A stretch of 17,058 nucleotides of DNA from an uncultured Lactobacillus sp. (GTDB lineage Bacteria > Bacillota > Bacilli > Lactobacillales > Lactobacillaceae): NCBI GenBank assembly GCA_945281075.1, contig CALYQE010000031.1, forward strand, positions 1 to 17,058, in the 5' to 3' direction. Position numbers and translations under genes: made by a program. Of this stretch, positions 586 through 14,938 are shown piece by piece. The notes under the pieces were generated by a model. It was given only the letters and a program-made list of their open reading frames with translations. It did no database searches and was not told the DNA's origin. Each line of letters starts with the position of its first letter. The stretch's first letter is position 1.

Positions 586-1464
586 TTAGTAGTATTTTTT
601 TCTAAATTTACCAGGTGATAATCCGGTAGCTTCCTTAATTTTTTTGTATAAATGTGATGCGTCTGTAAAACCACATAAACTAGCTATTTTTTCCAACGGA
701 ATAGCATTATCTTTTACTAATAAACTTTTAGCTACTTTAACGCGAACTTTTAATAAATAATGATGCAAACTCATACCTGTATATTTTTTAAAGTCTCGAG
801 AAAGTTGGGAAGGACTAATTGAGCAATTATAAGCAATATCACTTATTCTAATTTTTTGTTTGTAGTTTCGATTCATAAATTCTAGCGCAGACTTAATGTA
901 ATCAGGCATAGAATGAAAGTCACTTGATAAATTTGTTAATTTGTTTTCCTGTGTTACTGATAAGTCACAAATCAAATTGTAAGTTAAGTTTGATAAAAAT
1001 GGGTCATTTTGACCGTCGGAATTGGTAGAAATAAGTCTGAAAATTCTTATGAATAAATTCTCAATATTTTTGCGAGGATTAAAAACTGGAAGAGTATACT
1101 TAGTAATTTGATTGAAAATCTTTTGCATAAATGGGCTATTGAAGTGAAGAAAGTAAAATTCACTATCGGTAATAGCCTTATAGCTGTTTATTTCTTTACA
1201 GTCAAGTAAAACAATCTTATTCTTAGCGTGAAATTCCTGATTACGAAAACAAAACTTCAATTCTCCTTTTTTGATATACATAAGTAAAAATGAGTCCATA
1301 AAATCTCTCTTTACCTGATAAGGATAAGTTACCCGATATTCAGCTCCAAACATCGGGTAAAAGTATATTTCGTGAGCTAAATCACTGGGATTGTTATAAT
1401 ATATGCCTTTTTCAACAGTTACGCCACATTCATTTTCGGGAATAAAATCTTTGTACTTATTCAT
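586..1464 (-). CDS. AraC-family transcriptional regulator
   Basis: This is a 292-residue regulator, the usual length for AraC proteins with an N-terminal sensor. Residues about 20-170 look like the cupin-type ligand-binding arm. The last 105 residues form the double helix-turn-helix domain: first HTH around ISDIAYNCSISPSQLSRDFK, then the hallmark second HTH with IASLCGFTDASHLYKKIK and GLSPGKFRK. It starts one base after the stop of the upstream MFS gene, with its RBS (GAAGGA) inside the end of that gene, so the two are translationally coupled. It is the only transcription factor in the window and is the natural candidate to control the divergent inositol locus from the 2918-3537 region. Canonical inositol loci use the DeoR-type IolR instead. 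Ligand unknown; an inositol or a derivative is an inference from context. Confidence 0.93.
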   Translation of the reverse strand: MNKYKDFIPENECGVTVEKGIYYNNPSDLAHEIYFYPMFGAEYRVTYPYQVKRDFMDSFLLMYIKKGELKFCFRNQEFHAKNKIVLLDCKEINSYKAITDSEFYFLHFNSPFMQKIFNQITKYTLPVFNPRKNIENLFIRIFRLISTNSDGQNDPFLSNLTYNLICDLSVTQENKLTNLSSDFHSMPDYIKSALEFMNRNYKQKIRISDIAYNCSISPSQLSRDFKKYTGMSLHHYLLKVRVKVAKSLLVKDNAIPLEKIASLCGFTDASHLYKKIKEATGLSPGKFRKKYY

Positions 1465-1465: not shown

Positions 1466-2917
1466 TTATTCCTTCTTCATTTCTTTATCCTCAGCTGTTT
1501 CGCTAGACTGAAAACAGGATTGTAACTCTTCAAGAGACTTTCCACGTGTTTCAGGGATGAATTTAATTGCATAAAACAAAGAAAGAACATTTAATATGGT
1601 AAAAATAATAAATGTATTGCTTAATCCAAAATTTGTTAATAAAATCGGAAAAATATAGCCGACTAAAAAATTTGCAAACCAAAGAAAGAAAGTCGCTATG
1701 CCCATTGCCATTCCACGAATGCTCTGGGGAAAAATTTCCGATAACAGTACCCATACAATTGGCGAAACTCCACCCTGAAAAAAGATTAAGAAAATTGCCA
1801 TTAATATCAACATAATATATGGAAAAAGAGAATTATCCTTGAGCAAAAAAGACAAGATACTGATTATTAGCATAGTGGTAGTAGTACCACAAATTGCGGT
1901 AATGACCATTTTTCGTCTGTCAATTTTACCCATTAAATGAATGCTGACAATGGTTGCAATGGTTGAAATGATACCGTTGCTGATATTTGCGACTAAGGCT
2001 GCAGAATGGCTAAAACCCGCATTGCTTAGAACCGTTGTTCCATAAAACATAATAATGTTAATGCCAATGCCTTGCTGCATAATGCCTAGTCCAATGCCAA
2101 TTAAAATTAGACGCCGAATCCACGGAACTTTTAAGTCTTTTAGTGTTACCTTTTTTTGTTTATTACTTTTTGCTAAGGAATCTTCTATTTCGGATATTTC
2201 AGTTGATACGTCTTCCCTATTGCTACGAATATCCTTTAATATATTCGCGGCTTTTTTATTTTGATGTTTGGTAATCAGCCATCTTGGTGATTCTGGAACT
2301 TTGCTTATTCCGACTAAAAGTAAAACTTCTGGAATTAAGCCAAAAGCCAGCATATAGCGCCATACTCCACTGTAGTTACCTAGCATTACGCCAAAAAGAG
2401 CATTGATAATGTAAGCCAGTAATTGTCCGCTGACAATCATCAATTCATGATGATTAACAAAATTTCCCCTAATATCTGGGGTAGATAGTTCAGCAAGGAA
2501 AACAGGGCTAATGACAGATTCAGCCCCTACAGCTAATCCTAAAATGAATCTAAATAGGATCATTACAATGGCATTGGGAGCAAAAGTGCAACCTAAGGTA
2601 CCCAAAACAAAAATCCAGGCTGCGTACATTAAAACATGTTTTCTGCCAAATCGATCTGACAATTTGCCACCAATAACTGCGCCAAAAGCTGCACCTAAAG
2701 TTATTCCACTAGTAACTAGTCCTTCGTCTGAAGCATTTAAATTAAGCTGATCTGGTCTGCTCATAAAGGCCAGAGAGCCATTAGTTGCTCCTGTATCAAT
2801 TCCAAAAAGCAGACCACCCAAAGTGATTATCCAACCGTATAATTGTAACTTTTCTTTTTTCTTCTTATTTACGATCTCATCTTCTTTGCCAGAAGACGTA
2901 GCTTGATTATTATTCAT
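1466..2917 (-). CDS. MFS sugar-porter family transporter (IolT-like)
   Basis: This is a 483-residue, 12-helix major facilitator of the sugar porter family, located in the cytoplasmic membrane as a proton-linked importer. Diagnostic motifs are present: GKLSDRFGRKH after TM2, LAELSTPDIRGN after TM4, PESPRWL at the start of the central loop, QQGIGINIIMFYG in TM7, SEIFPQSIRG in TM10 and IPETRGKSLEEL at the C-terminus. An Asn/Lys-rich tail of about 25 residues precedes TM1. It is similar along its length to the divergently encoded porter at 3538. It is the first gene of a leftward pair with the AraC regulator. The start is supported by GGTGA four bases upstream. The substrate is a hexose or inositol by family; inositol is inferred from the neighbourhood. 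Confidence 0.92.
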   Translation of the reverse strand: MNNNQATSSGKEDEIVNKKKKEKLQLYGWIITLGGLLFGIDTGATNGSLAFMSRPDQLNLNASDEGLVTSGITLGAAFGAVIGGKLSDRFGRKHVLMYAAWIFVLGTLGCTFAPNAIVMILFRFILGLAVGAESVISPVFLAELSTPDIRGNFVNHHELMIVSGQLLAYIINALFGVMLGNYSGVWRYMLAFGLIPEVLLLVGISKVPESPRWLITKHQNKKAANILKDIRSNREDVSTEISEIEDSLAKSNKQKKVTLKDLKVPWIRRLILIGIGLGIMQQGIGINIIMFYGTTVLSNAGFSHSAALVANISNGIISTIATIVSIHLMGKIDRRKMVITAICGTTTTMLIISILSFLLKDNSLFPYIMLILMAIFLIFFQGGVSPIVWVLLSEIFPQSIRGMAMGIATFFLWFANFLVGYIFPILLTNFGLSNTFIIFTILNVLSLFYAIKFIPETRGKSLEELQSCFQSSETAEDKEMKKE

Positions 2918-3389: not shown

Positions 3390-3403
3390 GTGATTGCAAT
3401 CAC
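3390..3403. promoter_or_regulatory. Perfect 14-base palindrome, candidate operator
   Basis: GTGATTGCAATCAC is perfectly self-complementary. It sits between the cre-like site and the iolT start, and a near copy lies at 2957-2969 next to the divergent gene. Such symmetry suggests a dimeric repressor rather than an AraC protein, but no gene for one is in the window. Confidence 0.4.
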
Positions 3404-3537
3404 GAAAAAATAGATTTAAAGATCTATGTTACATAGGTATTTATTTTTTTGCTCGTTAAAAAAATAGGTGTGGTTAAGTTTAATCCTATGCTTTTATAAA
3501 TAATAGCATTAGGTTAGAAAAATTTGGAGATTGCAAA

Positions 3538-4944
3538 ATGCAAGAAGATAGTTATGAAAATAACCATCATGGTTATTTAGTTTTGGTTGCATGGATTGCA
3601 TGTATGGGAGCTCTTTGCTTCGGTTTTGATACTGGGGTAGTAAATGGGTCCTTAGATTTCATGGCAAAACCAAGTCAGTTAAACTTGTCAGCTTTTGAGC
3701 AAGGCGTTGTTTCAAGTGGGCTGACTTTTGGTGCCGCTTTTGGTGCCGTCTTTGGCAGTCCGTTAAGCGATCGAATTGGTCGTAAAAGGCTGATGATTTG
3801 GTTAGGAGTGTTATTCACAATTACCGCTTTGGGGTGTGGTTTTGCACCTAATACAATGATTCTGATTATTTTTAGAGTAATTATGGGTCTAGCAGTTGGT
3901 GCAACTTCTGCAATGGTACCCGTTTATTTAGCAGAAATTTCACCAGCTGAAGAACGCGGTAAATTTGTAAGCATGAACCAGTTGCTGATTGTCGGTGGTC
4001 AAGGACTAGCTTTTCTCATTAATGCCGTTTTGGGCAATACGATTGGTCTTCATGATGCTGCTGTGTGGAGAATAATGCTGGGTATTACGGCTATTCCAGG
4101 TGTTTTATTGTGGTTTGGCATGTACCTGGTTCCAGAAAGTCCTCAATGGTATGCAAACAAAGGAATGTTTGGCCAAGCTCTGGAAGCTCTTTGTCGGGTC
4201 AGGAGTAAGGCACAAGCAGAAGCTGAGATTAACGACTTAAAAGAAAACGCGGCAAAATTAAAACAAGAAAATGCAGAAAAAGCTTCGTTTAAAGATTTTA
4301 AAAAACCCTGGATTTTGCAAATTGTTATTACAGGTTCTTTATTAGGCGTTTTCCAACAATTTGCTGGAATTAACAGCGTCATGTATTACGGTACCAAAAT
4401 TTTAACTTCTGCTGGTTTTGGTAGCAATACATCATTATATATGAATATTGCAAATGGAGTATTTTCAGTAATTGGCGCCATTGTTGGAATGTATACGGTT
4501 GATAGACTTGGCAGAAAGCCATTGCTGCTAATCGGATATGTTTTTTGTGCAGTTGCTTTAGTTGCAATTGCGCTAATTGGCAGTTTTGCCCTTCATACTT
4601 CATGGGCTCCATTTGCAGTTTTGATTATTTTACTCATTTATATTGTGATTGATCAGGGGACCCTGGGGCCCGTTACGTGGTTGCTCAATTCGGAGATCTT
4701 CCCAGTCCGCTACCGTGGATTAGGAACTGGTATCACGATTTTTGTTTTATGGATGGCTAATTTTATAGTTGGATTAGTTTTTCCAGTTATTCTCTCTATT
4801 TTAGGGATATCATCATTCTATATTTTTGCGATATTCTGTCTTATCGGCGCATGGTTTGTCAAAGTTAGGATTCCAGAGACAAAGGGTGCTTCATTAGACA
4901 GTATTGAAAAATTCTTCCGTGAAAGATATGAAAAACAAAAATAA
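3538..4944 (+). CDS. iolT: Inositol/sugar MFS porter, IolT-like
   Basis: This is a 468-residue, 12-helix sugar porter of the major facilitator superfamily, a proton symporter in the cytoplasmic membrane. Family signatures in order: GSPLSDRIGRKR after TM2, VYLAEISPAEERGK after TM4, PESPQWYANKG opening the cytoplasmic loop, QQFAGINSVMYYG in TM7, VDRLGRKPLLL in the TM8-9 loop, SEIFPVRYRGLG in TM10 and RIPETKGASLDSIE at the end. The start is supported by GGAGA at 3526-3530, seven bases before the ATG. It precedes iolE by 35 bases, so the two are one transcription unit, which points to myo-inositol or a related cyclitol as substrate. The divergent porter at 1466-2917 is a paralog. The symbol rests on family plus context; a hexose substrate cannot be excluded from sequence. 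Confidence 0.88.
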   Translation: MQEDSYENNHHGYLVLVAWIACMGALCFGFDTGVVNGSLDFMAKPSQLNLSAFEQGVVSSGLTFGAAFGAVFGSPLSDRIGRKRLMIWLGVLFTITALGCGFAPNTMILIIFRVIMGLAVGATSAMVPVYLAEISPAEERGKFVSMNQLLIVGGQGLAFLINAVLGNTIGLHDAAVWRIMLGITAIPGVLLWFGMYLVPESPQWYANKGMFGQALEALCRVRSKAQAEAEINDLKENAAKLKQENAEKASFKDFKKPWILQIVITGSLLGVFQQFAGINSVMYYGTKILTSAGFGSNTSLYMNIANGVFSVIGAIVGMYTVDRLGRKPLLLIGYVFCAVALVAIALIGSFALHTSWAPFAVLIILLIYIVIDQGTLGPVTWLLNSEIFPVRYRGLGTGITIFVLWMANFIVGLVFPVILSILGISSFYIFAIFCLIGAWFVKVRIPETKGASLDSIEKFFRERYEKQK

Positions 4945-4979
4945 GCAACTAAATAATTTATTTAGTAAGGAGAAATATT

Positions 4980-5891
4980 ATGGCCGAATATAAAATTGAT
5001 AAAAATATTAAATTAGGTATTTGTCCTATTGGTTGGCGCAATGATGATATTCCATCAATTGGTGCTGAAAACACTTTTCCTCAACTCTTAAGCGATGCCG
5101 CATTAGCTGGCTTTAAGGGTGTAGAAATGGGTGGCTTTTTCCCAAGCACAGATGAAATAAATTACGAACGAAAATTGCGTCACATTGAAATTGCTGGTCA
5201 ATGGTTCAGCAGTTTCATTATTAGAGACGGTATTGAAAAAGCAACGGCTGACTTTGAAGAGCACTGCAAGAAACTACAGGCTCTAGGAGCTCACATTACT
5301 ACAGTTTCAGAGCAAACTTATTCAATTCAGCAAACAAGTAAAAATATTTTTACGGATAAACCTTACTTTACGGATAAGGAATGGGATGAAGTCTGTGAAG
5401 GCCTGAATAAATATGGTGAAATTGGTAAGAAATATGGCGTAAAAATCGCATATCATCACCACATGGGTACCGGCATTCAAACTTTTGAAGAAACTGAAAG
5501 ACTTATGGACAATACTGATCCGGACAAGGTTGGTCTGGTATTTGATACAGGTCATGCTTTTGTTTCAGAAGGTGAAGTAATGCCGATGCTTAACGCATTT
5601 ATTGACCGTGTTGTCCATGTACACTTCAAGGATGTTCGTAAAGCTAAAGAAGATGATTCAAAGGCAAGAGGATTGTCGTTCCAAGATGCATTTATGAATG
5701 ACATGTTCACTGTACCAGGTGACGGTGATATTGACTTTAGGCCAATATTTAAGGCACTAGCTGATCATCACTATACAGGTTGGATTATGGTTGAGGCAGA
5801 ACAGGATCCTAAGAAGCATAATCCATTTGAAATGGCATTAAAGGCACATAAGTATATGGAAGATGAACTGTTTGCACCATATAGAAAGTAA
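4980..5891 (+). CDS. iolE: Myo-inosose-2 dehydratase
   Basis: This 303-residue protein is an IolE of the xylose-isomerase-like TIM-barrel superfamily. It removes water from 2-keto-myo-inositol (scyllo-inosose) to give 3D-(3,5/4)-trihydroxycyclohexane-1,2-dione in the cytosol, using a divalent metal. Hallmark stretches known from Bacillus IolE are all present: CPIGWRNDD (15-23), GGFFP (51-55), AGQWFSSFIIRDGIE, VSEQTYSIQ, YHHHMGTGIQT (158-168), DTGH (189-192), HVHFKDVR (213-220), FTVPGDGDIDF and VEAEQDP (271-277). The last five supply the His, Asp and Glu residues of the metal site. Length matches the family. AAGGAG precedes the ATG and the gene follows iolT closely. It is one of the two most securely identified enzymes of the locus, together with iolG. 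Confidence 0.95.
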   Translation: MAEYKIDKNIKLGICPIGWRNDDIPSIGAENTFPQLLSDAALAGFKGVEMGGFFPSTDEINYERKLRHIEIAGQWFSSFIIRDGIEKATADFEEHCKKLQALGAHITTVSEQTYSIQQTSKNIFTDKPYFTDKEWDEVCEGLNKYGEIGKKYGVKIAYHHHMGTGIQTFEETERLMDNTDPDKVGLVFDTGHAFVSEGEVMPMLNAFIDRVVHVHFKDVRKAKEDDSKARGLSFQDAFMNDMFTVPGDGDIDFRPIFKALADHHYTGWIMVEAEQDPKKHNPFEMALKAHKYMEDELFAPYRK

Positions 5892-5991
5892 AAATAAGCA
5901 ATCATAAGTTAACAAGTATTTTTATCACTTATAACGTTTACTAGTTAATATCAAGAATGCAAATTTACCCGAACTGTAAACATCTAATTAT

Positions 5992-6019
5992 TTGAGTAGT
6001 TCTTTTAAAAATTCATAAT
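5992..6019 (+). promoter_or_regulatory. Promoter upstream of the flavoprotein gene
   Basis: TTGAGT (5992-5997), a 16-base spacer and CATAAT (6014-6019) resemble a sigma-A promoter, matching TTGACA at four and TATAAT at five positions. It lies 110 bases before the ATG at 6129 in the 237-base gap after iolE. I see no strong terminator in that gap, so iolT-iolE transcripts may also read through. Confidence 0.45.
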
Positions 6020-6128
6020 AATGATAAATTCACTAGTTTTTAGATTAATATAACATGCTTGTTTAATTAAATTTTTTAAATTAATTTACGCCTAATTTGC
6101 CTTAAAAAAAGAGAGGTTTTTAATAAAT

Positions 6129-7994
6129 ATGATAATTGATAAGTCCATAAATTGGGATAAAGTCTACGATGTAGTAGTGTTAGGCTTTGGTGGTGCTGGT
6201 GCTAGTGCAGCCAGATTTGCTGCAGATGACGGTGCAAAAGTTTTGGTAGCAGAAAAAGCTCCGGAAGGCCATGAGGGTGGTAATACCAGATACTCGGGCC
6301 AAAATGTTGGTTATACCCCAGATCCAGAAAAGTTCAGAACATATTATAAGCAGCTTGCGCAAGGCTTCCACATTGATAAAGACGTGGAAGATACTGTAAT
6401 CAAGGGCTTGTCAAACATGAAAGATTACTTCTCTAAATACTTAGAGGTAGAGCCGTTTGTATTTGGTGAACATCCGAATGATAACCCGTTAAGTCATACT
6501 GCTGATAATCAAACGACCGCAACACACCCAGAATTCACTAATTCTTCAGCTTCCGAATTAATGACTGTTCATAATGGAATGTTTGACTCTGCACTATGGA
6601 CTGTGCTTAGAGAGAGGGTTATTGACAGGATGGATAATATTGACGTTTGGTTTGAATCGCCAGCCGTTCATATTATTCAAACCCCTGATAAAACTGTCGT
6701 TGGTGTTCAAATCAAGAGAAAGGGCAAAGTGAGAAATATTGGAGCACGAAATGGTGTTGTTCTTTCAACTGGTGGCTTCTCGAATAGTAAAATTAAAATT
6801 CAAGATTTTATCGGTGAGCACCATTTAGCTCCAGTGGGAACTCTTTACAACACTGGTGATGGTATTGACCTTGCAATTGAAGCTGGTGCTAGATTATGGC
6901 ATATGACTACTTATAACTCAGCTGGCATCGTTGGTGATTTAACATTACCAGTGCATGAAGGTGAGCGCAGTATTTTCCAGCCAGCCGATATTGATGCTAA
7001 AGAAATGTACACAGGTAGCATTTTCTTAGTTGGTGATGATGGTACTAGATATTGTCGTGAAGATATATTTAGTATAGAGGGCTGGTTCTACAATCATGGT
7101 CAATGGCGGACGCCGCAGGCTCCAATTAAGCCGTACGTTGTTTTTGATCAAAAGCAATACGAAAGACTGGCTAAAATAGATCACGTACCATATCAACGAG
7201 CACTAAAGAATTTCTTGATAAGTGCTGACAGCGTTGAGAAACTGGCAGCCAAAATCGGTGTTGAAACAGAAACGCTAATTTCAACAATTGATATGTTTAA
7301 TTCTTACGCTGAATCCGGTAACGATCTAGATTACCACCGTGCAGCTGATACCATGGAGAGATTTGACGCAACGCATACTGTATATGCTTTGCCTATGGTT
7401 CAATCAATTGCGCAAACGCATGGTGGTCCAAAGAGAAACGGCAAGGCTGAGATCATGGATCCATTTAACAATGCGATTCCTCATTTTTATGGTGCAGGTG
7501 AACTAGGAAGCAACATTGTTAGGATTTATCAAGGTGGTGAAAACCTTGCTGACTGTCTGATATTTGGTAAGGTTGCAGGTGAAAATGCTGCCAAGGTAAA
7601 GCCCGACAGAAATAATGTGTTTGACGACAACAGTGATGTCACCTCAGGTGCATCTGTAAAAGAAGACACTGACTTATCTACCGATTTGAAGAAAAAATAT
7701 ACCGTTAAGCTGGACAAAAACCAATTTCTTGGCGTAAGTTCTGCTGGTATGGGCAATGATATCGTTGTCCGAATCACTGTAGATGATGACTTGAACCTGA
7801 AAAATGTTGAAGTTTTACAGGAAAGCGAAAGTGAAGACTATGGTAAGCGTGCGATTAAGACCTTGCCAAAAATCATGGTAGAGAAAAACACTTATGATGT
7901 TGATGTTGTTTCAGGAGCTTCTTCTTCGAGTCGAGCTATGAGGGAAGCTGTTAAAAACGCTTTAGATTCGGCAAAGGAATTCCATAGTAAATAA
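6129..7994 (+). CDS. Flavoprotein reductase: FAD domain plus C-terminal FMN-binding domain
   Basis: This 621-residue protein belongs to the fumarate reductase/urocanate reductase/tricarballylate dehydrogenase class, which transfers hydride between FAD and an activated C-C bond. An ADP-binding fold opens the protein (GFGGAGASAA from residue 19, GGNTRYSGQN from 51). Later motifs are DDGTRYCRED (about 303-312), QTHGGPKRNG around H431, and QGGENLADCLIFG (from 468) closing the FAD site. An Asp/Ser-rich linker (about 495-535) leads to an FMN_bind domain (about 536-618) ending in DVDVVSGASSSSRAM, the ApbE-type attachment motif with Ser598 where Thr is more common. There is no signal peptide, so it is cytosolic. 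The GAGAGG RBS sits 12 bases before the ATG, rather far. In this setting it may reduce an unsaturated cyclitol intermediate, but the substrate is not evident from sequence. Confidence 0.88.
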   Translation: MIIDKSINWDKVYDVVVLGFGGAGASAARFAADDGAKVLVAEKAPEGHEGGNTRYSGQNVGYTPDPEKFRTYYKQLAQGFHIDKDVEDTVIKGLSNMKDYFSKYLEVEPFVFGEHPNDNPLSHTADNQTTATHPEFTNSSASELMTVHNGMFDSALWTVLRERVIDRMDNIDVWFESPAVHIIQTPDKTVVGVQIKRKGKVRNIGARNGVVLSTGGFSNSKIKIQDFIGEHHLAPVGTLYNTGDGIDLAIEAGARLWHMTTYNSAGIVGDLTLPVHEGERSIFQPADIDAKEMYTGSIFLVGDDGTRYCREDIFSIEGWFYNHGQWRTPQAPIKPYVVFDQKQYERLAKIDHVPYQRALKNFLISADSVEKLAAKIGVETETLISTIDMFNSYAESGNDLDYHRAADTMERFDATHTVYALPMVQSIAQTHGGPKRNGKAEIMDPFNNAIPHFYGAGELGSNIVRIYQGGENLADCLIFGKVAGENAAKVKPDRNNVFDDNSDVTSGASVKEDTDLSTDLKKKYTVKLDKNQFLGVSSAGMGNDIVVRITVDDDLNLKNVEVLQESESEDYGKRAIKTLPKIMVEKNTYDVDVVSGASSSSRAMREAVKNALDSAKEFHSK

Positions 7995-8001
7995 AATTTT
8001 A

Positions 8002-8033
8002 TTGACAACAAATATGCGATGTGTAAAACACAT
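8002..8033 (+). promoter_or_regulatory. Promoter with an inverted repeat over the -10
   Basis: A perfect TTGACA (8002-8007) is followed after 16 bases by TAAAAC (8024-8029). The -10 lies inside a perfect inverted repeat, ATGTGT-AAA-ACACAT (8019-8033), well placed for a repressor to block polymerase. It would start the unit 8156-10915, upstream of the leader hairpin at 8059-8127. Confidence 0.5.
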
Positions 8034-8058
8034 TCGATGACATACTAAAATATTTGCT

Positions 8059-8127
8059 AAAACTCGTAGTTAACTTTTTCAGAATGATTAATGCAAACAT
8101 TCAGCTGATTAGTTCTACGAGTTTTTT
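8059..8127 (+). terminator. Leader hairpin with T-tract: terminator or attenuator
   Basis: Perfect 11-bp arms, AAAACTCGTAG (8059-8069) and CTACGAGTTTT (8115-8125), close a 45-base loop and run into a T6 tract (8122-8127). Inside, AACT (8072-8075) pairs with AGTT (8111-8114), and GAATG (8082-8086) pairs with CATTC (8098-8102). It lies 65 bases after the flavoprotein stop, between a promoter (8002-8029) and the next gene's RBS (8144-8149). It may end the upstream transcript, or act as a conditional attenuator in the leader of 8156. It matches no riboswitch class I can recognise. Confidence 0.55.
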
Positions 8128-8155
8128 GGTAAAAAGCAAAAATAAGGAGATTGCT

Positions 8156-8842
8156 ATGTTGAAAGGAATAATCCCTGTATCTGTTTCTGCAAGGTTAATA
8201 AGAAACTGTAAGAAAAGCACACCAGTTTTTGTCAGTGGCAGGCTCTTATCCTTAATGACTTTAGGTAGGGATAATGAAGGTCTGATTACTAGGCGTGAAT
8301 ATTTACAATACTTTACTACTTTGAGTATTGAAACAGATGCGGTATTAATTGCTGATGGTCAGACTGGTTTTGGTAATGAATTAAGTGCACGAATGACAGC
8401 AGAGGAGCTGGGCAATGCTGGCGCGAAATACTTGGTAATAAACGACCAAATTTGGCCTTCAACATCGGTAAAGATTTCAGGCTCAATTGCTAAAAAAATT
8501 TTCATTAATACTGTCAAAGCAGCCATATATGGTGCTGAAGATTATAATCTGCAAGTTGTTCCTAAACTGGAGGGAATTAATGAGTATGGCTATAGTGAAT
8601 TATTAAATCGTATTCAGGCATTGTTGCAATTAGGAATTACACAGATTATTGTTTCACGCTCTAATAAAAGTGACTTGCTTAAACTTAAGCAAACAGCATT
8701 TTTTAATCACTTAGGAATAGCGCTGGACGATCGAGCAATATCTTTTACTGAGGCCCGTGAATTAAAACCTTCATTTATTCTGCCGGTCAGGCAGACAATT
8801 GATCAGATTGAAAAAGCGGATAATGAAATATTGAGTTTTTAA
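8156..8842 (+). CDS. Isocitrate lyase/PEP mutase-fold protein, short and lacking the catalytic-loop Cys
   Basis: This 228-residue protein resembles the isocitrate lyase/PEP mutase superfamily (PrpB, oxaloacetate decarboxylase, PEP mutase) but is about 60 residues shorter than usual. The segment ADGQTGFG (66-73) corresponds to the family's D-x-D-T-G-(Y/F)-G, with the second, metal-binding Asp replaced by Gln69. INDQ (95-98) replaces IEDQ, and the K-x-C-G loop that should follow is missing. The ATG at 8156 is chosen because AAGGAG (8144-8149) stands six bases before it; an upstream in-frame ATG at 8054 lies within the leader hairpin. It precedes its larger paralog by 17 bases. Loss of key residues suggests a non-catalytic partner subunit or a changed reaction; the family assignment itself is moderately sure. 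Confidence 0.7.
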   Translation: MLKGIIPVSVSARLIRNCKKSTPVFVSGRLLSLMTLGRDNEGLITRREYLQYFTTLSIETDAVLIADGQTGFGNELSARMTAEELGNAGAKYLVINDQIWPSTSVKISGSIAKKIFINTVKAAIYGAEDYNLQVVPKLEGINEYGYSELLNRIQALLQLGITQIIVSRSNKSDLLKLKQTAFFNHLGIALDDRAISFTEARELKPSFILPVRQTIDQIEKADNEILSF

Positions 8843-8859
8843 TTTAGGGGGGAATAACA

Positions 8860-9735
8860 ATGAAAAACAAAGCACAAATAATGTGTTCGGCTTTTAATGA
8901 TTTAGTTCACGAAGGTGATAAAATCCTCAAATTACCAATTGCCGGCAATGGACTATCAGCCAAAGTATGTGAAAAAGCGGGTGCAAGGGCCATTAATTTG
9001 ACTGGCTTTGCAGTTAATTCTGCTTATGGTCAGCCCAACATGGGATTTGCTGATTTTTATGCATTATTTAATCAGGCAAAAGAGATAATTGATAGCGTTG
9101 ATATTCCTGTTTTATGTGATGTAGGTACCGGTCATGGTTTTAGGGAAAATATTGCGAGAACTACGCGTAGCTACGAAGCCATTGGTGCAGCAGGAATTTA
9201 CATTGATGACGGAGTCTGGCCTAAAGCATGCGGCATGATGGCGAAAACTATGATTGTGCCAATACCCGAAATGGTAAACAGAATTTACGCTGCAGTTGCA
9301 GCCAGAAAAAATAATGATTTTACAATTATGGTTCATACATCTTCTCGTGATATTTGTAATATTAATGAGACAATTAATAAATGCAGCAATTACGTTAAGG
9401 CAGGCGCTGATATGCTGTTCATTGATAATATTGCAAGTATTATGGAAGTTAGCAAAATTATCAGAGAAATTCCAGATACACCATTGCTAATAAATGCCTG
9501 CTCACTGAAAGAACCTATCAGCATGAATGAGTTGCTTAAATTAGGCGTTTCCATAGTAACATTCGATGATAGCACGTTATATGCAAGTGTAGAAAAAGAG
9601 CAGGAGACGCTTAGACAAGAGCTTAAGTGTACAACTGTTTCAAAAAAGCAGAAAACTTGTAATGATGCAGCACGTTTTTCGCGTCTTGTTGGGACTGAAA
9701 GTATTGCTAATCTCGAAAAAAAATTCAAGATATAA
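8860..9735 (+). CDS. Isocitrate lyase/PEP mutase-family protein, variant active site
   Basis: This 291-residue protein is full length for the PrpB/PEP mutase family, TIM-barrel enzymes that make or break C-C or P-C bonds next to carboxylates. The order of motifs follows PrpB: NSAYGQPNMGFAD early, CDVGTGHG (86-93) for the metal-site D-x-D-T-G-Y-G, IDDG (115-118) for IEDQ, and PKACGMM (121-127) for the catalytic loop K-R-C-G-H, keeping Cys124. Then comes VHTSSRD where PrpB has ARTDA. Thus Gly89 replaces the second metal-binding Asp, and the Arg and His used for carboxylate binding are changed. GGGGGG (8846-8851) serves as the RBS. Neighbours are the shorter paralog upstream and an MFS transporter 13 bases downstream. 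Probably a lyase with an unusual substrate; the reaction cannot be named. Confidence 0.82.
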   Translation: MKNKAQIMCSAFNDLVHEGDKILKLPIAGNGLSAKVCEKAGARAINLTGFAVNSAYGQPNMGFADFYALFNQAKEIIDSVDIPVLCDVGTGHGFRENIARTTRSYEAIGAAGIYIDDGVWPKACGMMAKTMIVPIPEMVNRIYAAVAARKNNDFTIMVHTSSRDICNINETINKCSNYVKAGADMLFIDNIASIMEVSKIIREIPDTPLLINACSLKEPISMNELLKLGVSIVTFDDSTLYASVEKEQETLRQELKCTTVSKKQKTCNDAARFSRLVGTESIANLEKKFKI

Positions 9736-9748
9736 TTGGGATATTTTC

Positions 9749-10915
9749 ATGAAAAAACAAAGACTAACAATTAAATTTATCACTATTATCGTTTTATTTT
9801 GGTTTGCGCAATATGTTTATATTCCCTACCAAACTCCCTTTTTGACAGCTATCAATGTAGCTTCAAACCTTATTGGTCTTGTTGTAGGAGCCTACGGTTT
9901 ATCACAGTTGTTGCTTAGAATACCAATAGGCATGCTAGCAGATTGGTATTTGAATCACAAATTACTTATCATTTTTGGAACATTTCTTTCCGGATTTGCT
10001 TCTTTGATAAGGTTAGTTTTTCCAAATGGAATAGGATTTTTAATTGGTAATATTATTTCAGGAATTGCTAGCTCAACTTGGCTGTCCTTTATGCTCTTTT
10101 TTTTAAAAATTAACACTAAAAATAGTAAAGTAGAAAATATGGCAATTCTAGTAATGTTTAATAATATAGGAATGCTTTTAGGATTTATAATTTCCAGTAT
10201 TTTTTATGGGCAATTTTCGATGTCAGGTTTATGTTTATTTAGCATTATAGCTGGAATACTAGCTTTTGCATTATCCATAACGCTACCAGATGTTGCCTTT
10301 TCAACTAACTCTGGTCAAAATCTCTGGTCTAATTTTTTTCGAGTTGTAAAAAACAAGACTTTACTGATATGCGGGCTTCTTGCATTTATTCAGCAGGGTG
10401 TCCAGATGTCAACCACAATGTCTTTTACCACTCAAGTTATTAAAGAAATTCATGCACCAGAATATTCTGAGGGTCTTTCTTCAATTATCTTCATGATGGC
10501 AGCAGTTATATTTGCGCAAATAACCTCTTCAAGGCTTCTTTCCCGATTTTCCAAAAAAAGCATCTTGATAGTTAGCTATATTCTGTTAGCAATTTACTGC
10601 TTTTTGGTACCAATCACAAAGAATATTTATTTAATCTACTTTTTACAGCTCATACCAGGAATTGGTACAGGGACGCTGTTCGCAATTCTAAATGCTGTGG
10701 CGATTTCTGAAGTACCACAAGCCGCATTGTCAACTGCAACTGGTTTTTTTCAATCTATTTATGCGTTAGGGATGACATTATTTCCAATTCTAGCAGGCCA
10801 ATTGCGTGCTAAATATTCAATGATTACAGCATTTTATGTATTAGGGATTGCTTCATTAATAGGTGGATTCATAGTACTGCTTTTTGGGGATAAAAAGACG
10901 AAAATATTTAGTTAG
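9749..10915 (+). CDS. MFS transporter, not of the sugar-porter family
   Basis: This 388-residue major facilitator has about 12 predicted transmembrane helices and no large central loop. The loop-2 motif is LLLRIPIGMLADW, in the style of MFS_1 drug or organic-anion carriers rather than sugar porters, and PESPR/PETKG signatures are missing. The ATG at 9749 is chosen over the in-frame ATG at 9662 because the longer form would begin inside the preceding gene and add 29 unrelated hydrophilic residues. A weak TTGGGAT stands in for an RBS, so translation is probably coupled to the gene 13 bases upstream. Grouping with the two lyase-like genes suggests it imports their substrate or exports an end product such as an organic acid. 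Direction and substrate unknown. Confidence 0.85.
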   Translation: MKKQRLTIKFITIIVLFWFAQYVYIPYQTPFLTAINVASNLIGLVVGAYGLSQLLLRIPIGMLADWYLNHKLLIIFGTFLSGFASLIRLVFPNGIGFLIGNIISGIASSTWLSFMLFFLKINTKNSKVENMAILVMFNNIGMLLGFIISSIFYGQFSMSGLCLFSIIAGILAFALSITLPDVAFSTNSGQNLWSNFFRVVKNKTLLICGLLAFIQQGVQMSTTMSFTTQVIKEIHAPEYSEGLSSIIFMMAAVIFAQITSSRLLSRFSKKSILIVSYILLAIYCFLVPITKNIYLIYFLQLIPGIGTGTLFAILNAVAISEVPQAALSTATGFFQSIYALGMTLFPILAGQLRAKYSMITAFYVLGIASLIGGFIVLLFGDKKTKIFS

Positions 10916-10944
10916 TTTTTACATTTTATAAATATTTATTTACA

Positions 10945-10972
10945 TTGTGAGAAGTTTATAAAGCTCTATAAT
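10945..10972 (+). promoter_or_regulatory. Strong promoter upstream of iolG
   Basis: TTGTGA (10945-10950), a 16-base spacer and a perfect TATAAT (10967-10972) form a good sigma-A promoter, so transcription should begin near 10979. This excludes the in-frame ATG at 10971 as the start of iolG. Confidence 0.7.
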
Positions 10973-10986
10973 GAATTTTGTATCAA

Positions 10987-11005
10987 GTAAGCGAAAGCGC
11001 TTACC
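10987..11005. promoter_or_regulatory. Palindromic cre-like operator just after the start site
   Basis: GTAAGCG-AAAG-CGCTTAC (10987-11004) is a perfect inverted repeat. It contains CGAAAGCGCTTACC (10992-11005), which fits the CcpA cre consensus except at the outermost bases. It would lie about 13 bases into the transcript from the 10945-10972 promoter, a roadblock position. A LacI-family local repressor would bind a similar site. Confidence 0.6.
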
Positions 11006-11036
11006 TAAAAATAACTTAAGTCTTAGGAGGCAAATT

Positions 11037-12062
11037 ATGACACTTAGAATAGGTATTATTGGTTGTGGTTACAAGGGAACCGACCATGTCGAACGTGTTG
11101 CAAATAGTATTAACGGCGCAACACTAGCAGGTGTGGCTGACATCAAACAGGAACGTGCAGCAAAACTGGCAAAAAAGTTTAACTGCAGGCAATTCAAAAC
11201 GGGCGATGAATTGATTGAATCACCTGATATTGATGCAGTCATGGTTGTTACTCGTCCACACGATACTCATGTACCATTTGTTCTTAAATCTCTTGAAGTA
11301 GGTAAATACGTCTTTAGTGAAAAGCCACTTTCAACTTCCGCTGAGGACTGTAAGCGTGTTGTTGAAGCTGAAACCAAAATCGGTAAGCGAATGGTGCAAG
11401 TAGGCTTTATGCGTCGCTATGATAATGGCTACCGTCAAATCAAGAAGGCAATCGATGAAGGAACGTATGGCAAACCATTGGTTCTTCACATGACTCATAG
11501 AAACGAAACTACAGTTTCAGACTATTATGACAACGATGCAATTGTTGAAACAGCTATTCACGAATGCGACATCATGCACTGGTTGGTAGGAAGTGACTAT
11601 GACAAAGTTTCTTGCTTTATTCCAGGCGCACAGACCAAGTATACCCACAAAGGTTTGAAAGACCCACAAATTATGACTTTCGACACTAAGAGCGGCGTAC
11701 ATGCTGACCTCGAAGTTTTTGTTAATAACCATAACAGCTATGACATAAACTGTGAAGTCGTTTGTGAAGAAGGTAATATTGCTTTGACTAGTCCAACATT
11801 CACATCAGTCAAGACACAAGAAAGATTCCAGACTTCAATTCCACAAAATGACAGCTTTCGCTTCCGTCAGGCCTTTGACTCTGAAATTCAGGATTGGGTA
11901 AATGGAGTTTTGGCCGATCATCTTAACCCAACTGCACCTACAACTTGGGATGGTTTAATGGCTTGCGTCGCAGCTGATGCTTTAGAGAAGTCACGCGATA
12001 ACGGCTTTGTTAAGGAGCCAGTTATTTTACCAGAGAGACCAGCTCTTTATGAAAACAAGTAA
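11037..12062 (+). CDS. iolG: Myo-inositol 2-dehydrogenase
   Basis: This 341-residue Gfo/Idh/MocA oxidoreductase oxidises myo-inositol to 2-keto-myo-inositol with NAD+, the first intracellular step of inositol breakdown. The N-terminal Rossmann fold shows GIIGCGYKG with G9, G11 and G14. EKP (95-97) carries the substrate lysine K96. IHECDIMHWL (175-184) supplies the catalytic Asp179 and His182 pair seen in Bacillus IolG. Long stretches match my recollection of Bacillus IolG, for example MVQVGFMRRYDNGY (119-132), GLKDPQIM, SYDINCEVVCEEGNI and DSEIQDW. The ATG at 11037 follows TAGGAGG (11024-11030). It heads a unit with iolH and an iolI-like gene, under its own promoter and cre-like site. Some relatives act on scyllo- or chiro-inositol, so the exact isomer is open. 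Confidence 0.9.
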   Translation: MTLRIGIIGCGYKGTDHVERVANSINGATLAGVADIKQERAAKLAKKFNCRQFKTGDELIESPDIDAVMVVTRPHDTHVPFVLKSLEVGKYVFSEKPLSTSAEDCKRVVEAETKIGKRMVQVGFMRRYDNGYRQIKKAIDEGTYGKPLVLHMTHRNETTVSDYYDNDAIVETAIHECDIMHWLVGSDYDKVSCFIPGAQTKYTHKGLKDPQIMTFDTKSGVHADLEVFVNNHNSYDINCEVVCEEGNIALTSPTFTSVKTQERFQTSIPQNDSFRFRQAFDSEIQDWVNGVLADHLNPTAPTTWDGLMACVAADALEKSRDNGFVKEPVILPERPALYENK

Positions 12063-12091
12063 TAAGATAAGAAGAAAAAAGAGGTCTTTTA

Positions 12092-12958
12092 ATGAAATTA
12101 GCATATGATGCTTCGATGTTTCGTGATAACACACCTCTTCATGAGACAATTGACAAAGTAGCTCAGTTGGGTTACAAGTACCTGGAATTAGCTCCAAGAC
12201 AAGACTTTTTCTGGTTTTACCAATATCCGAAGGCAAATTCGGCCATGATTGCTGATGTTCGCAAATGGTGTATGGATGCAGGAGTACAAATTTCATCGTT
12301 GGTACCTGTCCAGCAATGGTCATCGCCAAACGAACAGGAACGCCAGGCAGCAGTTCGCAATATGAAGAGAACTATTTGGCTAGCATCAGAATTAGGAGTC
12401 GATATAATTAATACTGAGTTTTCTGGCGATAAATATAATTCTGTAACCTCTGAAGGTCAATGGTATAAATCGATGGAAGAATTGCTTCCAATTTTTGAAA
12501 AAGAAGGAATTCGTCTTGAGATTCAGGCTCATCCAAATGACTTTGTCGAATCAAGCTATGCCGCAGCTCAACTTATTCGTTCATTAAATTCAGATAATGT
12601 AGGACAAGTATTGTGTTCAGCACACGCTTTCTATTCAGATGCTGGTAAGGGTGATGTGCGTCAAGAAATTTTGGATTCAAAAGATATTTTGAGCCACATA
12701 TTAATCGCAGATACATTTAATTTTGCTGGATCATATGGATTACGATACACAATTAATCCTCCTGGTGCCCCCGTTACAATTCACCAACACCTCAATCCAG
12801 GTGAAGGTGAAGTAGATATGGATACATTCTATGCTACTCTTCGTGAAATTAACTTTGATGGTATTGTTACGAACAACGTATTTATGTGGCCTGACCGTAT
12901 TGAATGGTCAAATGAAAAAACATTAAAGTCTATTAAAGAAGGACTTCATATAAACTAA
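12092..12958 (+). CDS. iolH: IolH-family TIM-barrel protein of inositol metabolism
   Basis: This 288-residue xylose-isomerase-like TIM barrel closely follows Bacillus IolH: QLGYKYLELAPR near the start, WSSPNEQERQAAVRNMKR, MEELLPIFEKEGIRLEIQAHP in the middle, then LSHILIADTFN, YTINPPGAP and IHQHLNPGEGEVDMDTFY. The Glu, His and Asp residues in the last group are the probable metal site. IolH belongs to inositol loci, but its reaction has never been firmly settled; an isomerase or epimerase role on an inosose-derived intermediate is the usual suggestion. An AGAGG RBS precedes the ATG, 29 bases after iolG, and the next gene starts 13 bases downstream, so the three are co-transcribed. Confidence 0.88.
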   Translation: MKLAYDASMFRDNTPLHETIDKVAQLGYKYLELAPRQDFFWFYQYPKANSAMIADVRKWCMDAGVQISSLVPVQQWSSPNEQERQAAVRNMKRTIWLASELGVDIINTEFSGDKYNSVTSEGQWYKSMEELLPIFEKEGIRLEIQAHPNDFVESSYAAAQLIRSLNSDNVGQVLCSAHAFYSDAGKGDVRQEILDSKDILSHILIADTFNFAGSYGLRYTINPPGAPVTIHQHLNPGEGEVDMDTFYATLREINFDGIVTNNVFMWPDRIEWSNEKTLKSIKEGLHIN

Positions 12959-12971
12959 AAAGGAGACAGTT

Positions 12972-13823
12972 ATGCTTTCTTACGATGACTTTTGTATTAA
13001 TAGAAAAGCAGCACCAGGATTAGATTTAAAAGATTTTATTCGCATGGTTGCTGATTTGGGGATCAAGTATATTGAATTACGTAATGATATTACAGGTAAA
13101 GTTGATAACTCCACAATTTTAGATGATTACCAGCCAGAGGAGATCAAGGACCTGCTTGATGAAAAGGGCATTCAGGTCGTTGATATCAATGCTCAGGGCA
13201 ACATGGATTTAGTAACAAAATTAGATGAAAATATCACTAGTTTGGAAGAAATGATTCGTATTGGTCGCGTTTTAAAAGTTAAGAACATTTTATTTTGTCC
13301 TGTTAGGGATGAAAATGATTCAAGAACTAGTGAAGAAAAATATCAAGGCGCAGTTAACAACATGAAAGCATACTCAAACTTGCTAAAGGAAAATGACATG
13401 AGCGGCTTGCTTGAGCCCTTGGGTTTTATGGATTCTTCCCTTAGAACCCCTTGGCAAGCTCAGGATGTTATCAAAGACGCTGGTGTAGATAACTTTAAAC
13501 TAGTAGCCGACAACTTCCATTACTATTTAGCTAATGTTACTCAAAAAGATTTCGACACAAAAATTGATCCACAAATGGTTGGTTTGGTTCACCTAAGTTC
13601 GGTCATCAACCATAAGAAACGTGAAAACTTAGATGATGCTGACAGAATCATGCTAGATGAAAATGACATAATGCGTGCTGATGTTCATGCAAAAATGTTC
13701 GAAAATAGTTCTTATGACGGACTATATTCATTTGAGCCTTTTTCACCTGAACTATACAAATGGGATGCCAAAAAGGCTAAAAAAGAAATTATTCACAGTA
13801 TTAATTTAATTAATGCTAACTAA
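12972..13823 (+). CDS. IolI-like sugar isomerase/epimerase, TIM barrel (copy 1 of 3)
   Basis: This 283-residue protein has the xylose-isomerase-like barrel fold. It keeps four positions that bind metal in IolI (2-keto-myo-inositol isomerase) and relatives: Glu148 in LLEPLGF, Asp180 with His183 in VADNFHYY, His207 in GLVHLSS and Glu255 in SFEPFSPE. The N-terminus carries CINRKAAPGL, shared with two paralogs encoded on the opposite strand at 14090-14938 and 14951-15808, and differing from Bacillus IolI. It starts 13 bases after iolH with AAGGAG as RBS and is the last gene before the 13948 terminator. Probable role: isomerising or epimerising a keto-inositol or ring-opened keto-acid. A lyase role like that of C-deglycosidase barrels is possible. 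Confidence 0.82.
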   Translation: MLSYDDFCINRKAAPGLDLKDFIRMVADLGIKYIELRNDITGKVDNSTILDDYQPEEIKDLLDEKGIQVVDINAQGNMDLVTKLDENITSLEEMIRIGRVLKVKNILFCPVRDENDSRTSEEKYQGAVNNMKAYSNLLKENDMSGLLEPLGFMDSSLRTPWQAQDVIKDAGVDNFKLVADNFHYYLANVTQKDFDTKIDPQMVGLVHLSSVINHKKRENLDDADRIMLDENDIMRADVHAKMFENSSYDGLYSFEPFSPELYKWDAKKAKKEIIHSINLINAN

Positions 13824-13947
13824 TTTGAATCAAATACTTACTTCATAATCCAATTCGTTTATCAAAAATAAAGTTTAATAAAACAAACAGTAGACTTATC
13901 AAAATCAAACCCTTTCAAAGTTTTTGCTTAACTTTCTAATCGCAAAA

Positions 13948-14089: not shown

Positions 14090-14938
14090 TTATCCCGCAA
14101 TAATCTTTTCTATGCTACTTGAGATTTCTTTCTTGCATTTATCATAACTCCAGTCATTAATTTCAGGAGCACATGGTTCAAAAGAATAAAGACCAAAATA
14201 GTTGCTTTCTTTAAACCAATTTGCTTGCTCTACTGATTTCATTACATCATCTTTATTATCAGAAATAAAGTAGCGGTCAGCGTCGTCTGCCTCTTCAGGG
14301 TTCTTGTTAGTCGTGATTGAACTGAGGTGGATTAAACCAACCCGGCTGACATCAACTTTTTTTGTAAAGTCATCTTTAGTAACACCTGCCTTATAGTAAT
14401 GGAAAGTATCGGCAATTAACTTGAAGTTTTTAGCATCGGCTTCTTGAAGAATTCTTTGTGCAACCCACGGAAAGCGGAGTGATGAGTCACCAAAGCCAAG
14501 TGGCTCAACAAGTCCGTTTACACCCACTGCACCGAGAATATCAGAATAAATACGAATATTGTGAACTAAATCGGCAAATTTTTGCTCGTCAGTTCGAATA
14601 TCATCGGTGTTTCGAATAGGAGTAAAAAGGATGTTCTGCGCACCAATTTTCTGCGCAATTTCCGTTAATTTAGTGACTTCTTGCAGTTTTTGGTTCCAAT
14701 TACTTTGATCATCTAAGTTAAATTCGGCAGAAATATTGGCGACATGTACATCATAGTTGCGCTGCAAGTTGTTAAATTCATCAGTAGTTAAATCATCTAA
14801 AAAATTACTGCCTTGATGAATATCAGTGCGAAGTTCAATATTGTGAACACCCACATCATTTGCTAATTTAACAAATTCGGGTAATGAGAGACCGCCGGCA
14901 CAACAACGATTAACACAAAAATCATTTAATTCTAGCAT
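14090..14938 (-). CDS. IolI-like TIM-barrel protein (copy 2 of 3)
   Basis: This 282-residue paralog of the 12972 and 14951 genes opens with FCVNRCCAGGL. It keeps the metal-binding pattern: Glu in LVEPLGFGDSSLR, Asp and His in IADTFHYY, His in GLIHLSS, Glu in SFEPCAPE. The two Cys in the N-terminal motif replace residues Lys and Ala of the other copies and could alter the pocket. AGGAGGA precedes the ATG and overlaps the stop of the upstream gene, so it is the second gene of a leftward operon with copy 3. Function as for the other copies: a sugar or keto-inositol isomerase or epimerase, reaction unproven. This is the most divergent of the three by eye. Confidence 0.82.
   Translation of the reverse strand: MLELNDFCVNRCCAGGLSLPEFVKLANDVGVHNIELRTDIHQGSNFLDDLTTDEFNNLQRNYDVHVANISAEFNLDDQSNWNQKLQEVTKLTEIAQKIGAQNILFTPIRNTDDIRTDEQKFADLVHNIRIYSDILGAVGVNGLVEPLGFGDSSLRFPWVAQRILQEADAKNFKLIADTFHYYKAGVTKDDFTKKVDVSRVGLIHLSSITTNKNPEEADDADRYFISDNKDDVMKSVEQANWFKESNYFGLYSFEPCAPEINDWSYDKCKKEISSSIEKIIAG

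What the first reader, a model, noticed from the sequence alone, without database searches (positions are those of the whole stretch)
3538..13823. Inositol locus with a replaced lower pathway
IolT, IolG, IolE and IolH are recognisable, but IolD (ring hydrolase), IolB, IolC (kinase), IolJ (aldolase) and IolA are absent from this 10-kb locus. Where they would be expected stand a flavin reductase, two isocitrate lyase/PEP mutase-fold proteins and a non-sugar MFS carrier. The IolE product is an enolisable cyclic dione, so reduction at its C-C double bond by a fumarate-reductase-like enzyme would be chemically sensible and would reoxidise the NADH made by IolG. Subsequent C-C cleavage without phosphorylation could fall to the lyase-fold pair. 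This would be a variant fermentative cyclitol pathway.
Basis: partly seen in the sequence, partly recalled or inferred. Interest (0 to 1): 0.75.

Follow-up and report, generated by a model that had tools for sequence, protein, structure and literature searches.

The report
Inositol locus with reductive lower branch
A Lactobacillus carries the first enzymes for handling inositol-type ring sugars but not the usual later ones; a flavin enzyme that may reduce the ring compound sits among them, so these bacteria may dump electrons on inositol rather than eat it in the textbook way.

Summary
Sugar porters, IolE, an IolG-type enzyme and TIM-barrel genes form a cluster without iolA/B/C/D; a FAD/FMN reductase (FRD), two isocitrate-lyase-fold genes and an MFS carrier lie inside it. 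No iolA, B, C or D passes its curated cut-off in this genome (76% complete) or in two 99% complete relatives that share the locus. IolE without IolD is not unique: 17 of 19 other sampled Lactobacillaceae genomes with this IolE class lack iolD. Of those, 16 loci were fetched; 14 hold an MDR-type (quinone/enone) reductase, and the other two genomes have it on another contig. In the window's lineage the FRD may fill that slot: it occurs in exactly the 3 of 75 genus genomes that have IolE, evolves as slowly as IolE, precedes a conserved terminator-like hairpin, and lacks the fumarate-reductase arginines. I favour a reductive, IolD-independent branch (0.45). Substrate, product and electron donor are untested.

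The parts
586..1464 (-). AraC-family regulator
   Evidence: HTH_18 72.1 bits, AraC_binding 25.6; kept in L005 and L054 at 74 and 80%
1466..2917 (-). second sugar-porter-like MFS transporter (not scanned itself against family libraries)
   Evidence: ORF; orthologues 81 and 77% in L005 and L054; 40-42% hit to window IolT orthologue region in L005
3390..3403 (.). perfect palindrome GTGATTGCAATCAC upstream of the IolT-like gene, operator-like
   Evidence: identical in three species; one exact match in the window, 0.09 expected at up to 2 mismatches
3538..4944 (+). IolT-like sugar porter
   Evidence: TIGR00879 339 bits, cut-off 237.8
4980..5891 (+). IolE, myo-inosose-2 dehydratase family
   Evidence: TIGR04379 349.1 bits, cut-off 290; PDB 3cny E 9e-139; 59 polar positions invariant in 18 IolE sequences
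6129..7994 (+). FRD: FAD_binding_2 + C-terminal FMN_bind flavoprotein, no N-terminal flavin-reductase domain found
   Evidence: PF00890 90 bits, PF04205 51.7 bits; active-site comparison; dN as IolE
8059..8125 (+). terminator-like hairpin (11-bp outer stem, long loop, then T run) between FRD and ICLa
   Evidence: stem kept in three species, one compensatory pair among 14 predicted pairs; not listed by the simple consensus scan
8156..8842 (+). ICLa: divergent ICL/PEP-mutase-fold protein without the active-site Cys
   Evidence: PF13714 20.6 bits, below cut-off; start codon by alignment with relatives; motifs
8860..9735 (+). ICLb: ICL/PEP-mutase-fold protein with altered catalytic motifs
   Evidence: PF13714 121.3 bits; TIGR02317 150.9 vs 354.4; alignments
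9749..10915 (+). MFS carrier, not of the sugar-porter type; the ORF opens at 9662, start at 9749 chosen here
   Evidence: MFS_1 108.5 bits; no sugar-porter model among its NCBIfam matches except an arabinose transporter subfamily far below cut-off; dN 0.23-0.27
11037..12062 (+). IolG-type Gfo/Idh/MocA dehydrogenase (start codon inferred)
   Evidence: NF052679 352.4 bits, below its 540 cut-off
12092..12958 (+). TIMa, IolI-like TIM barrel
   Evidence: AP_endonuc_2 139.6 bits; PDB 1i60 IolI E 1.8e-7
12972..13823 (+). TIMb, AP_endonuc_2 TIM barrel
   Evidence: 77.7 bits; 42-52% relatives beside TIMa in other lactobacilli
14090..14938 (-). TIMc, paralogue of TIMb
   Evidence: 43% to TIMb; kept in L005 and L054
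14951..15808 (-). TIMd, paralogue of TIMb
   Evidence: 47% to TIMb; kept in L005 and L054

Best explanation
This is a cyclitol cluster of a Lactobacillus lineage in which the classical upper enzymes feed a reductive, IolD-independent branch. The porters import a cyclitol; the IolG-type enzyme oxidises it to an inosose and makes NADH; the IolI-like TIM barrel adjusts the isomer; IolE removes water, giving a ring dione or its enol. Instead of hydrolytic ring opening by IolD, the FAD/FMN flavoprotein reduces this compound, or a further dehydrated enone, so that reducing equivalents are disposed of; the reduced ring leaves the cell, perhaps by the MFS carrier. Shown: genes, order, conservation, absence of iolABCD over cut-off, IolE family and conserved residues, FRD domains and altered active site. 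Inferred: substrate, FRD reaction, electron donor, export, role as electron sink. The ICL pair is not needed here and its role is open.
For: FRD orthologue and IolE occur in the same 3 of 75 genus genomes. FRD dN 0.065-0.075, beside IolE 0.062-0.074 and IolT 0.058-0.063. IolE-FRD gap is 237, 138 and 46 bp; a conserved terminator-like stem follows the FRD. In 16 fetched iolD-less IolE loci of other lactobacilli, 14 hold an MDR-type reductase and the other two genomes have a 76% and a 62% orthologue on another contig; none of 9 iolD-positive genomes has a match above 36%, and none of the 3 genomes with this locus has any at E<=1e-20. A plasmid-borne L. plantarum copy repeats this, and an L. salivarius one has an aldo/keto reductase instead. 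IolE keeps all 59 polar positions invariant in 18 sequences, iolD-positive ones included. ApbE in 3 of 3 genomes.
Against: No biochemistry. The FRD family is large and its substrates are mostly unknown: 48 of 75 genus genomes have a match at E<=1e-100, and this genome has 8. The three FRD-IolE genomes may reflect one event, and the 16 MDR loci are related and partly mobile, so the counts are not independent. The MDR enzyme's role is itself unproven, and the L. salivarius enzyme resembles a carbonyl reductase. The IolG-type enzyme is below its equivalog cut-offs and this lineage's IolE has 15 substitutions of its own, so the substrate may not be myo-inositol. No electron donor identified. The IolE-FRD gap in the window (237 bp) could hold a promoter.
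Confidence: 0.45

Rival explanations
1. FRD, ICL pair and MFS carrier form a separate module for another dietary compound (for example an unsaturated plant acid or phenolic) that became inserted between two iol gene groups.
For: The ICL pair stands without iol genes in the fetched flanks of 12 other loci, often followed by an MFS gene (two of these carriers checked, aromatic-acid-symporter type but below cut-off). Relatives of the FRD of about 800 aa have an architecture that I recall for HcrB, a hydroxycinnamate reductase (PMC10295242, passages).
Against: The FRD orthologue is found only in the 3 IolE genomes of 75 and changes in step with IolE, not with the ICL pair; the hairpin separates it from the pair. 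None of the 12 stand-alone pairs has a close FRD next to it; L008 has a distant one (26% identity) about 4 kb away.
Confidence: 0.22
2. One reading: the FRD reduces the IolE product and the ICLa-ICLb pair then cleaves the carbon ring without phosphorylation, feeding fermentation.
For: The pair is kept with the cluster in three genomes as intact ORFs; ICLb keeps Lys122, Cys124 and Gly125 and invariant residues of its own in 13 aligned rows; loss of the residue aligned with an acid-binding Arg would suit a non-acid substrate (residue role recalled).
Against: ICLb has lost DxD, EDQ, KRCGH-type and RTD motifs that relatives keep; ICLa lacks the Cys in 17 of 17 aligned rows; dN 0.30-0.37 against 0.04-0.075 for the core; hairpin between FRD and pair.
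Confidence: 0.12
3. The substrate is another ring polyol or keto-sugar, such as D-chiro-inositol, pinitol or a quinate-like acid; the scheme is reductive but not for myo-inositol.
For: The dehydrogenase fits the inositol/D-chiro-inositol model best yet stays below cut-off; IolI-like TIMa and three TIMb-type paralogues suggest several isomers; reduction of quinate and shikimate by lactobacilli is recalled, not retrieved (the search listed no paper on it).
Against: IolE passes the inosose dehydratase cut-off and keeps the invariant polar residues; no shikimate-pathway gene was named in the locus.
Confidence: 0.12
4. The classical pathway is complete after all, with iolA/B/C/D/J elsewhere in the genome but missed.
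For: The window genome is 76% complete; below-cut-off relatives of iolC, iolA and iolD exist; iolJ was not searched.
Against: iolB gives no match in 3 of 3 genomes, two of them 99% complete; best iolC 177.7 vs 300, iolA 199.6 vs 448.5, iolD 156.2 vs 715.
Confidence: 0.04

Closest known systems
Lactiplantibacillus plantarum lp_3604-3615 myo-inositol cluster (PMC11066574, passages) and the plasmid copy L067
   Same: IolT, IolG-type enzymes and IolE; in L067 also AraC regulator, TIM barrels and no annotated iolB/C/D
   Different: L067 has an NADP-dependent (MDR) oxidoreductase and an HbpS-like gene, no FRD, no ICL pair
Classical iol cluster (control L070, Peribacillus plasmid)
   Same: IolE (57% identity over the match), porter, IolG-type enzyme, TIM barrels
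   Different: iolA, B, C, D and an aldolase gene present there, absent here
Anaerostipes inositol-to-propionate fermentation (PMC8355322, passages)
   Same: anaerobic inositol use by a gut bacterium with IolG and IolE
   Different: it uses IolD, B, C and J and reduces the three-carbon product, not the ring
HcrB hydroxycinnamate reductase of L. plantarum (PMC10295242, passages)
   Same: NADH- and flavin-dependent C=C reduction in lactobacilli; family relationship to the FRD is recalled, HcrB itself was not aligned
   Different: HcrB carries its own NAD(P)H-binding flavin-reductase domain (COG0431); none found in the FRD
Methylisocitrate lyase PrpB
   Same: fold and overall alignment of ICLb (E 4e-27 to PDB 3eoo)
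   Different: metal- and substrate-site motifs replaced in ICLb; ICLa lacks the Cys

Membership tests
Inositol catabolic gene cluster (IolCatGC, PMC9430895) | at least three of iolB, iolC, iolD, iolE within 10 kb | tested here: not met
   only iolE in the locus; iolB, C, D not over cut-off in the genome; definition
myo-inosose-2 dehydratase (IolE) | curated model TIGR04379 | tested here: met
   349.1 bits vs 290
myo-inosose-2 dehydratase (IolE) | dehydratase activity | not testable with these tools
   59 invariant polar residues kept is only indirect
Inositol 2-dehydrogenase (IolG) | equivalog models TIGR04380 or NF052679 | tested here: not met
   180.5 vs 355; 352.4 vs 540
Inosose isomerase (IolI) | sequence match to IolI | tested here: inconclusive
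   PDB 1i60 E 1.8e-7; IolO model 55.1 vs 300
Fumarate reductase (flavocytochrome c type) | Arg402, His504, Arg544 (roles recalled) | tested here: not met
   Ser315, Ala428, Tyr467 in the MAFFT alignment; the HMMER alignment puts Gln, not Arg, at the third place
ApbE-flavinylated FMN_bind protein | FMN_bind domain with SGA[S/T] site and an ApbE in the genome | tested here: met
   PF04205 51.7 vs 22; SGAS; ApbE 3 of 3 genomes; flavinylation itself untested
HcrB hydroxycinnamate reductase | own NAD(P)H-dependent flavin-reductase domain | tested here: not met
   no PF03358 in the FRD, present in relatives of about 800 aa
Methylisocitrate lyase / ICL-fold lyase (ICLb) | curated model TIGR02317 and DxD, KRCGH-type and RTD motifs | tested here: not met
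   150.9 vs 354.4; DVG, KACGM, HTS
IolD-less IolE cluster of Lactobacillaceae (defined here) | IolE with sugar porters and IolG-type genes, no iolB/C/D nearby | tested here: met
   16 fetched examples elsewhere
IolD-less IolE cluster of Lactobacillaceae (defined here) | MDR-type reductase (in 14 of 16 other loci) | tested here: not met
   no match at E<=1e-20 in G000, G415, G446

The most novel reading that the evidence does not exclude
A cyclitol-reducing electron sink: inositol is oxidised, dehydrated and then reduced on the ring by a flavinylated ene-reductase, so that it serves as electron acceptor, with deoxy-cyclitols excreted and no IolD-type ring opening. The general form would hold for the many lactobacilli with IolE but no IolD, lineages using different reductases; the ICLa-ICLb pair would be a heteromeric, re-purposed enzyme acting on the neutral reduced ring.
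Probability: 0.22. Interest if true: 0.75.

Novelty: new variant of a known kind. Interest (0 to 1): 0.5.

Why it matters
If true, lactobacilli annotated as inositol users on the strength of iolE, iolG and iolT do not break inositol down by the textbook route, which would change genome-based predictions for insect and animal guts. It would add cyclitols to the electron acceptors of lactic acid bacteria, give a substrate to one of the many orphan flavin reductases of this genus, and make testable why IolE so often survives without IolD.

Tried and rejected
A single-protein scan of genome contigs with ICLb confirmed no relative; the permitted second scan, with an alignment of ICLa relatives, gave 14 loci. 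The own-genome search for GD_AH_second was aimed at a family that does not bear on the question. The consensus scan found no excess (promoters 35 found, 39.6 expected; terminators 9 found, 6.7 expected, the FRD-ICLa hairpin not among them). A catabolite-repression-like pattern, recalled, was at chance (45 found, 45.2 expected). Rfam: no match. I tried to read Tyr467 of the FRD as a ketosteroid-dehydrogenase-type carbonyl-binding Tyr: the one plasmid protein annotated kstD that I aligned has Val there and a paper search for that residue returned nothing, so it is not claimed. dS is saturated (pS 0.67-0.87), so only dN is used. Residue roles in PrpB and fumarate reductase are recalled. Ten paper searches were answered; no listed title or abstract start describes a ring-reducing, IolD-less inositol pathway, but most listed papers were not opened and only open-licence papers are held. 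Seven papers were opened: passages of PMC11066574, PMC9430895, PMC8355322, PMC10295242, PMC7752859, PMC11263657; outline, abstract, sections 8 and 9 of PMC10433979.

Rows left out before counts: one search aligned the 120 listed of 2032 FRD matches (one of its 18 close relatives, P0032, is the window's own protein or a near copy); one search used 24 of those; searches used 12 of 202 and 9 of 31 matches; one search fetched 18 of the 19 other genomes of the 63-68% IolE class (G142 left out, for its likeness to G092 and G118) and none of the 5 of the 46-48% class; L039, L041, L047 and L049 are shorter than 20 kb; one search left out L016; the 18 IolE sequences were chosen by hand and leave out six of the fetched loci plus L055, the second copy of L005. 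Co-occurrence of the FRD with IolE outside the genus was not searched beyond the fetched flanks.
Full report
WHAT IS THERE. The window is G000:C31:1-17058, in a 1.84-Mb assembly of 188 contigs, 76% complete. A conserved locus runs from 586 to 15808: an AraC regulator and a sugar-porter-like gene on the minus strand; IolT-like porter, IolE, FRD, ICLa, ICLb, MFS carrier, IolG-type dehydrogenase, TIMa and TIMb on the plus strand; TIMc and TIMd on the minus strand (families). The same order stands in L005 (Lactobacillus laiwuensis; its contig has the same length, 45866, as that of G415, L055) and in L054 (G446, whose single contig has the length, 1635875, listed for L. xylocopicola proteins). L. 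[quoted passage not shown]). The hosts of the window's organism and of L. laiwuensis were not established here.

IS THE LOWER PATHWAY MISSING? In G000, G415 and G446, iolB gives no match, and iolC, iolA and iolD give none over their curated cut-offs (0 of 3 each). Control genome G049 passes in all four searches and G105 in the three that included it. G415 and G446 are 99% complete. iolJ was not searched. By the published definition (three of iolB, C, D, E within 10 kb; PMC9430895, passages) this is not an inositol catabolic cluster.

A WIDER PATTERN. In a sample of 397 genomes of the family, 25 have an IolE match at E<=1e-60. Without G000 these are 19 at 63-68% identity and 5 at 46-48%. iolD passes its cut-off in 9 of 397: all 5 of the second class, 2 of the 19 (G155, G298), and two genomes without an IolE match at that limit (G105, G330). 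So 17 of 19 have this IolE and no iolD. I fetched 18 of the 19 loci; 16 are without iolD, and none of these showed iolB, iolC or iolD near IolE. Of the 16, 14 carry an MDR-type oxidoreductase (matches to PIG3 quinone oxidoreductase and crotonyl-/acryloyl-CoA reductase models, all below cut-off), 13 an HbpS-like gene and 6 TIMa. The two without the MDR gene are on short contigs, and their genomes carry orthologues of 76% and 62% on another contig. None of 9 iolD-positive genomes has a match above 36%, and none of G000, G415, G446 has one at E<=1e-20. An L. plantarum plasmid has the cluster between IS256 elements with an NADP-dependent oxidoreductase of that family and no annotated iolB/C/D (that gene table is incomplete by the tool's own word). 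An L. salivarius plasmid has an aldo/keto reductase there; another L. salivarius strain is reported with iolA, B, D, E, G and I (PMC7752859, one passage). The L. plantarum cluster lp_3604-3615 is treated as myo-inositol metabolism or production (PMC11066574, passages). So IolE without IolD is common in lactobacilli and tends to come with a reductase. The genomes are related and the cluster is partly mobile: this is a correlation, not independent events.

WHY THE FRD BELONGS TO THE CORE. The FRD orthologue (88%) and IolE occur in the same 3 of 75 genus genomes. dN across the three species: FRD 0.065-0.075, IolT 0.058-0.063, IolE 0.062-0.074, IolG 0.047-0.066, TIMa 0.040-0.068. The IolE-FRD gap is 237, 138 and 46 bp. 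An 11-bp stem followed by a T run lies between FRD and ICLa in all three species (window 8059-8125; one compensatory pair), with a long loop unlike a simple terminator. The palindrome GTGATTGCAATCAC upstream of IolT is identical in the three.

WHAT THE FRD IS. FAD_binding_2 plus C-terminal FMN_bind with an SGAS motif; ApbE is encoded in 3 of 3 genomes. Against flavocytochrome c3, Arg402 aligns with Ser315, His504 with Ala428 and Arg544 with Tyr467. The Tyr is in 120 of 120 aligned relatives; Ser315 is in 18 of 18 close relatives and 3 of the other 102. HMMER places Gln instead of Tyr against Arg544, in either case no Arg. It belongs to a large family of flavin reductases in lactobacilli (48 of 75 genus genomes have a match at E<=1e-100) and is not a fumarate reductase by these residues. 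Relatives of about 800 aa carry an extra flavin-reductase domain; this one does not, and its electron donor is unknown.

WHAT THE ICL PAIR IS. Of the 14 loci, L005 is the present locus, L018 has one gene, and 12 have an ICLa-ICLb tandem without iol genes in the fetched flanks, some of them short. A stingless-bee lactobacillus, Nicoliella, has such a pair with an MFS gene on a plasmid. In the 11 of 12 that I aligned, ICLb keeps KRCGH and the other canonical motifs. In the window, L005 and L. xylocopicola they read DVG, DDG, KACGM (or KSCGQ, KECGQ), His for the Arg of RTD, and Asp for Glu. ICLa has no Cys at that place in 17 of 17 aligned rows. dN is 0.30-0.31 for ICLa, 0.33-0.37 for ICLb and 0.23-0.27 for the MFS carrier. 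In the genus, ICLb relatives occur in 5 of 75 genomes: the three with this locus, G421 (39%) and G431 (32%). The pair looks recruited and re-purposed, or decaying; ring cleavage by it is neither shown nor excluded.

MECHANISM. From the established reactions of IolG and IolE, the expected product is a ring dione or its enol. IolE here is sound at sequence level: 59 polar positions are invariant in 18 sequences, three of them from iolD-positive loci, though this lineage has 15 substitutions of its own and only 56% identity to the Peribacillus enzyme, against 64-67% for the other lactobacilli. Reduction of that compound by the FRD and export of the product is my inference (0.45). It would dispose of reducing equivalents in a homofermentative, anaerobically grown Lactobacillus. 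Substrate, product and donor are the open points.

NOVELTY. The parts are known. The FRD-IolE association, the reductase pattern in IolD-less clusters and the altered ICL pair were not seen in the titles and abstract starts listed by the paper searches, which cover open-licence papers only. New variant of a known kind; interest 0.5.

Noticed in passing
L006-L017; L069:7408-8930: A tandem of two ICL/PEP-mutase-fold genes, one without the active-site Cys and one canonical, recurs in many Lactobacillaceae genera, often with an MFS carrier; it may be a heteromeric enzyme of unknown substrate.
   Followed up: partly
L067:1-23943: An IolD-less iol cluster with MDR reductase lies between IS256 transposase genes on an L. 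plantarum plasmid typed as mobilizable, so the set may travel as a unit.
   Followed up: no
L068:3334-9585: In an L. salivarius plasmid copy an aldo/keto reductase (DkgA-like, below cut-off) stands where other lactobacilli have the MDR reductase.
   Followed up: partly
G000, G431 and other genus genomes: FMN_bind flavin reductases are strongly multiplied in this genus: 8 matches at E<=1e-100 in G000, 11 in G431; most substrates unknown.
   Followed up: no
window 3390-3403: Perfect 14-bp palindrome upstream of IolT, identical in three species; its regulator is unknown, since such a palindrome is not typical of AraC-type sites (recalled).
   Followed up: partly
G105, G330: Two family genomes pass the iolD cut-off but have no IolE match at E<=1e-60.
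   Followed up: no
window 16141-17058: Minus-strand basic ORF and a Lys/Gln-rich frame running off the window with an HFDPDCRGL motif; not identified.
   Followed up: no
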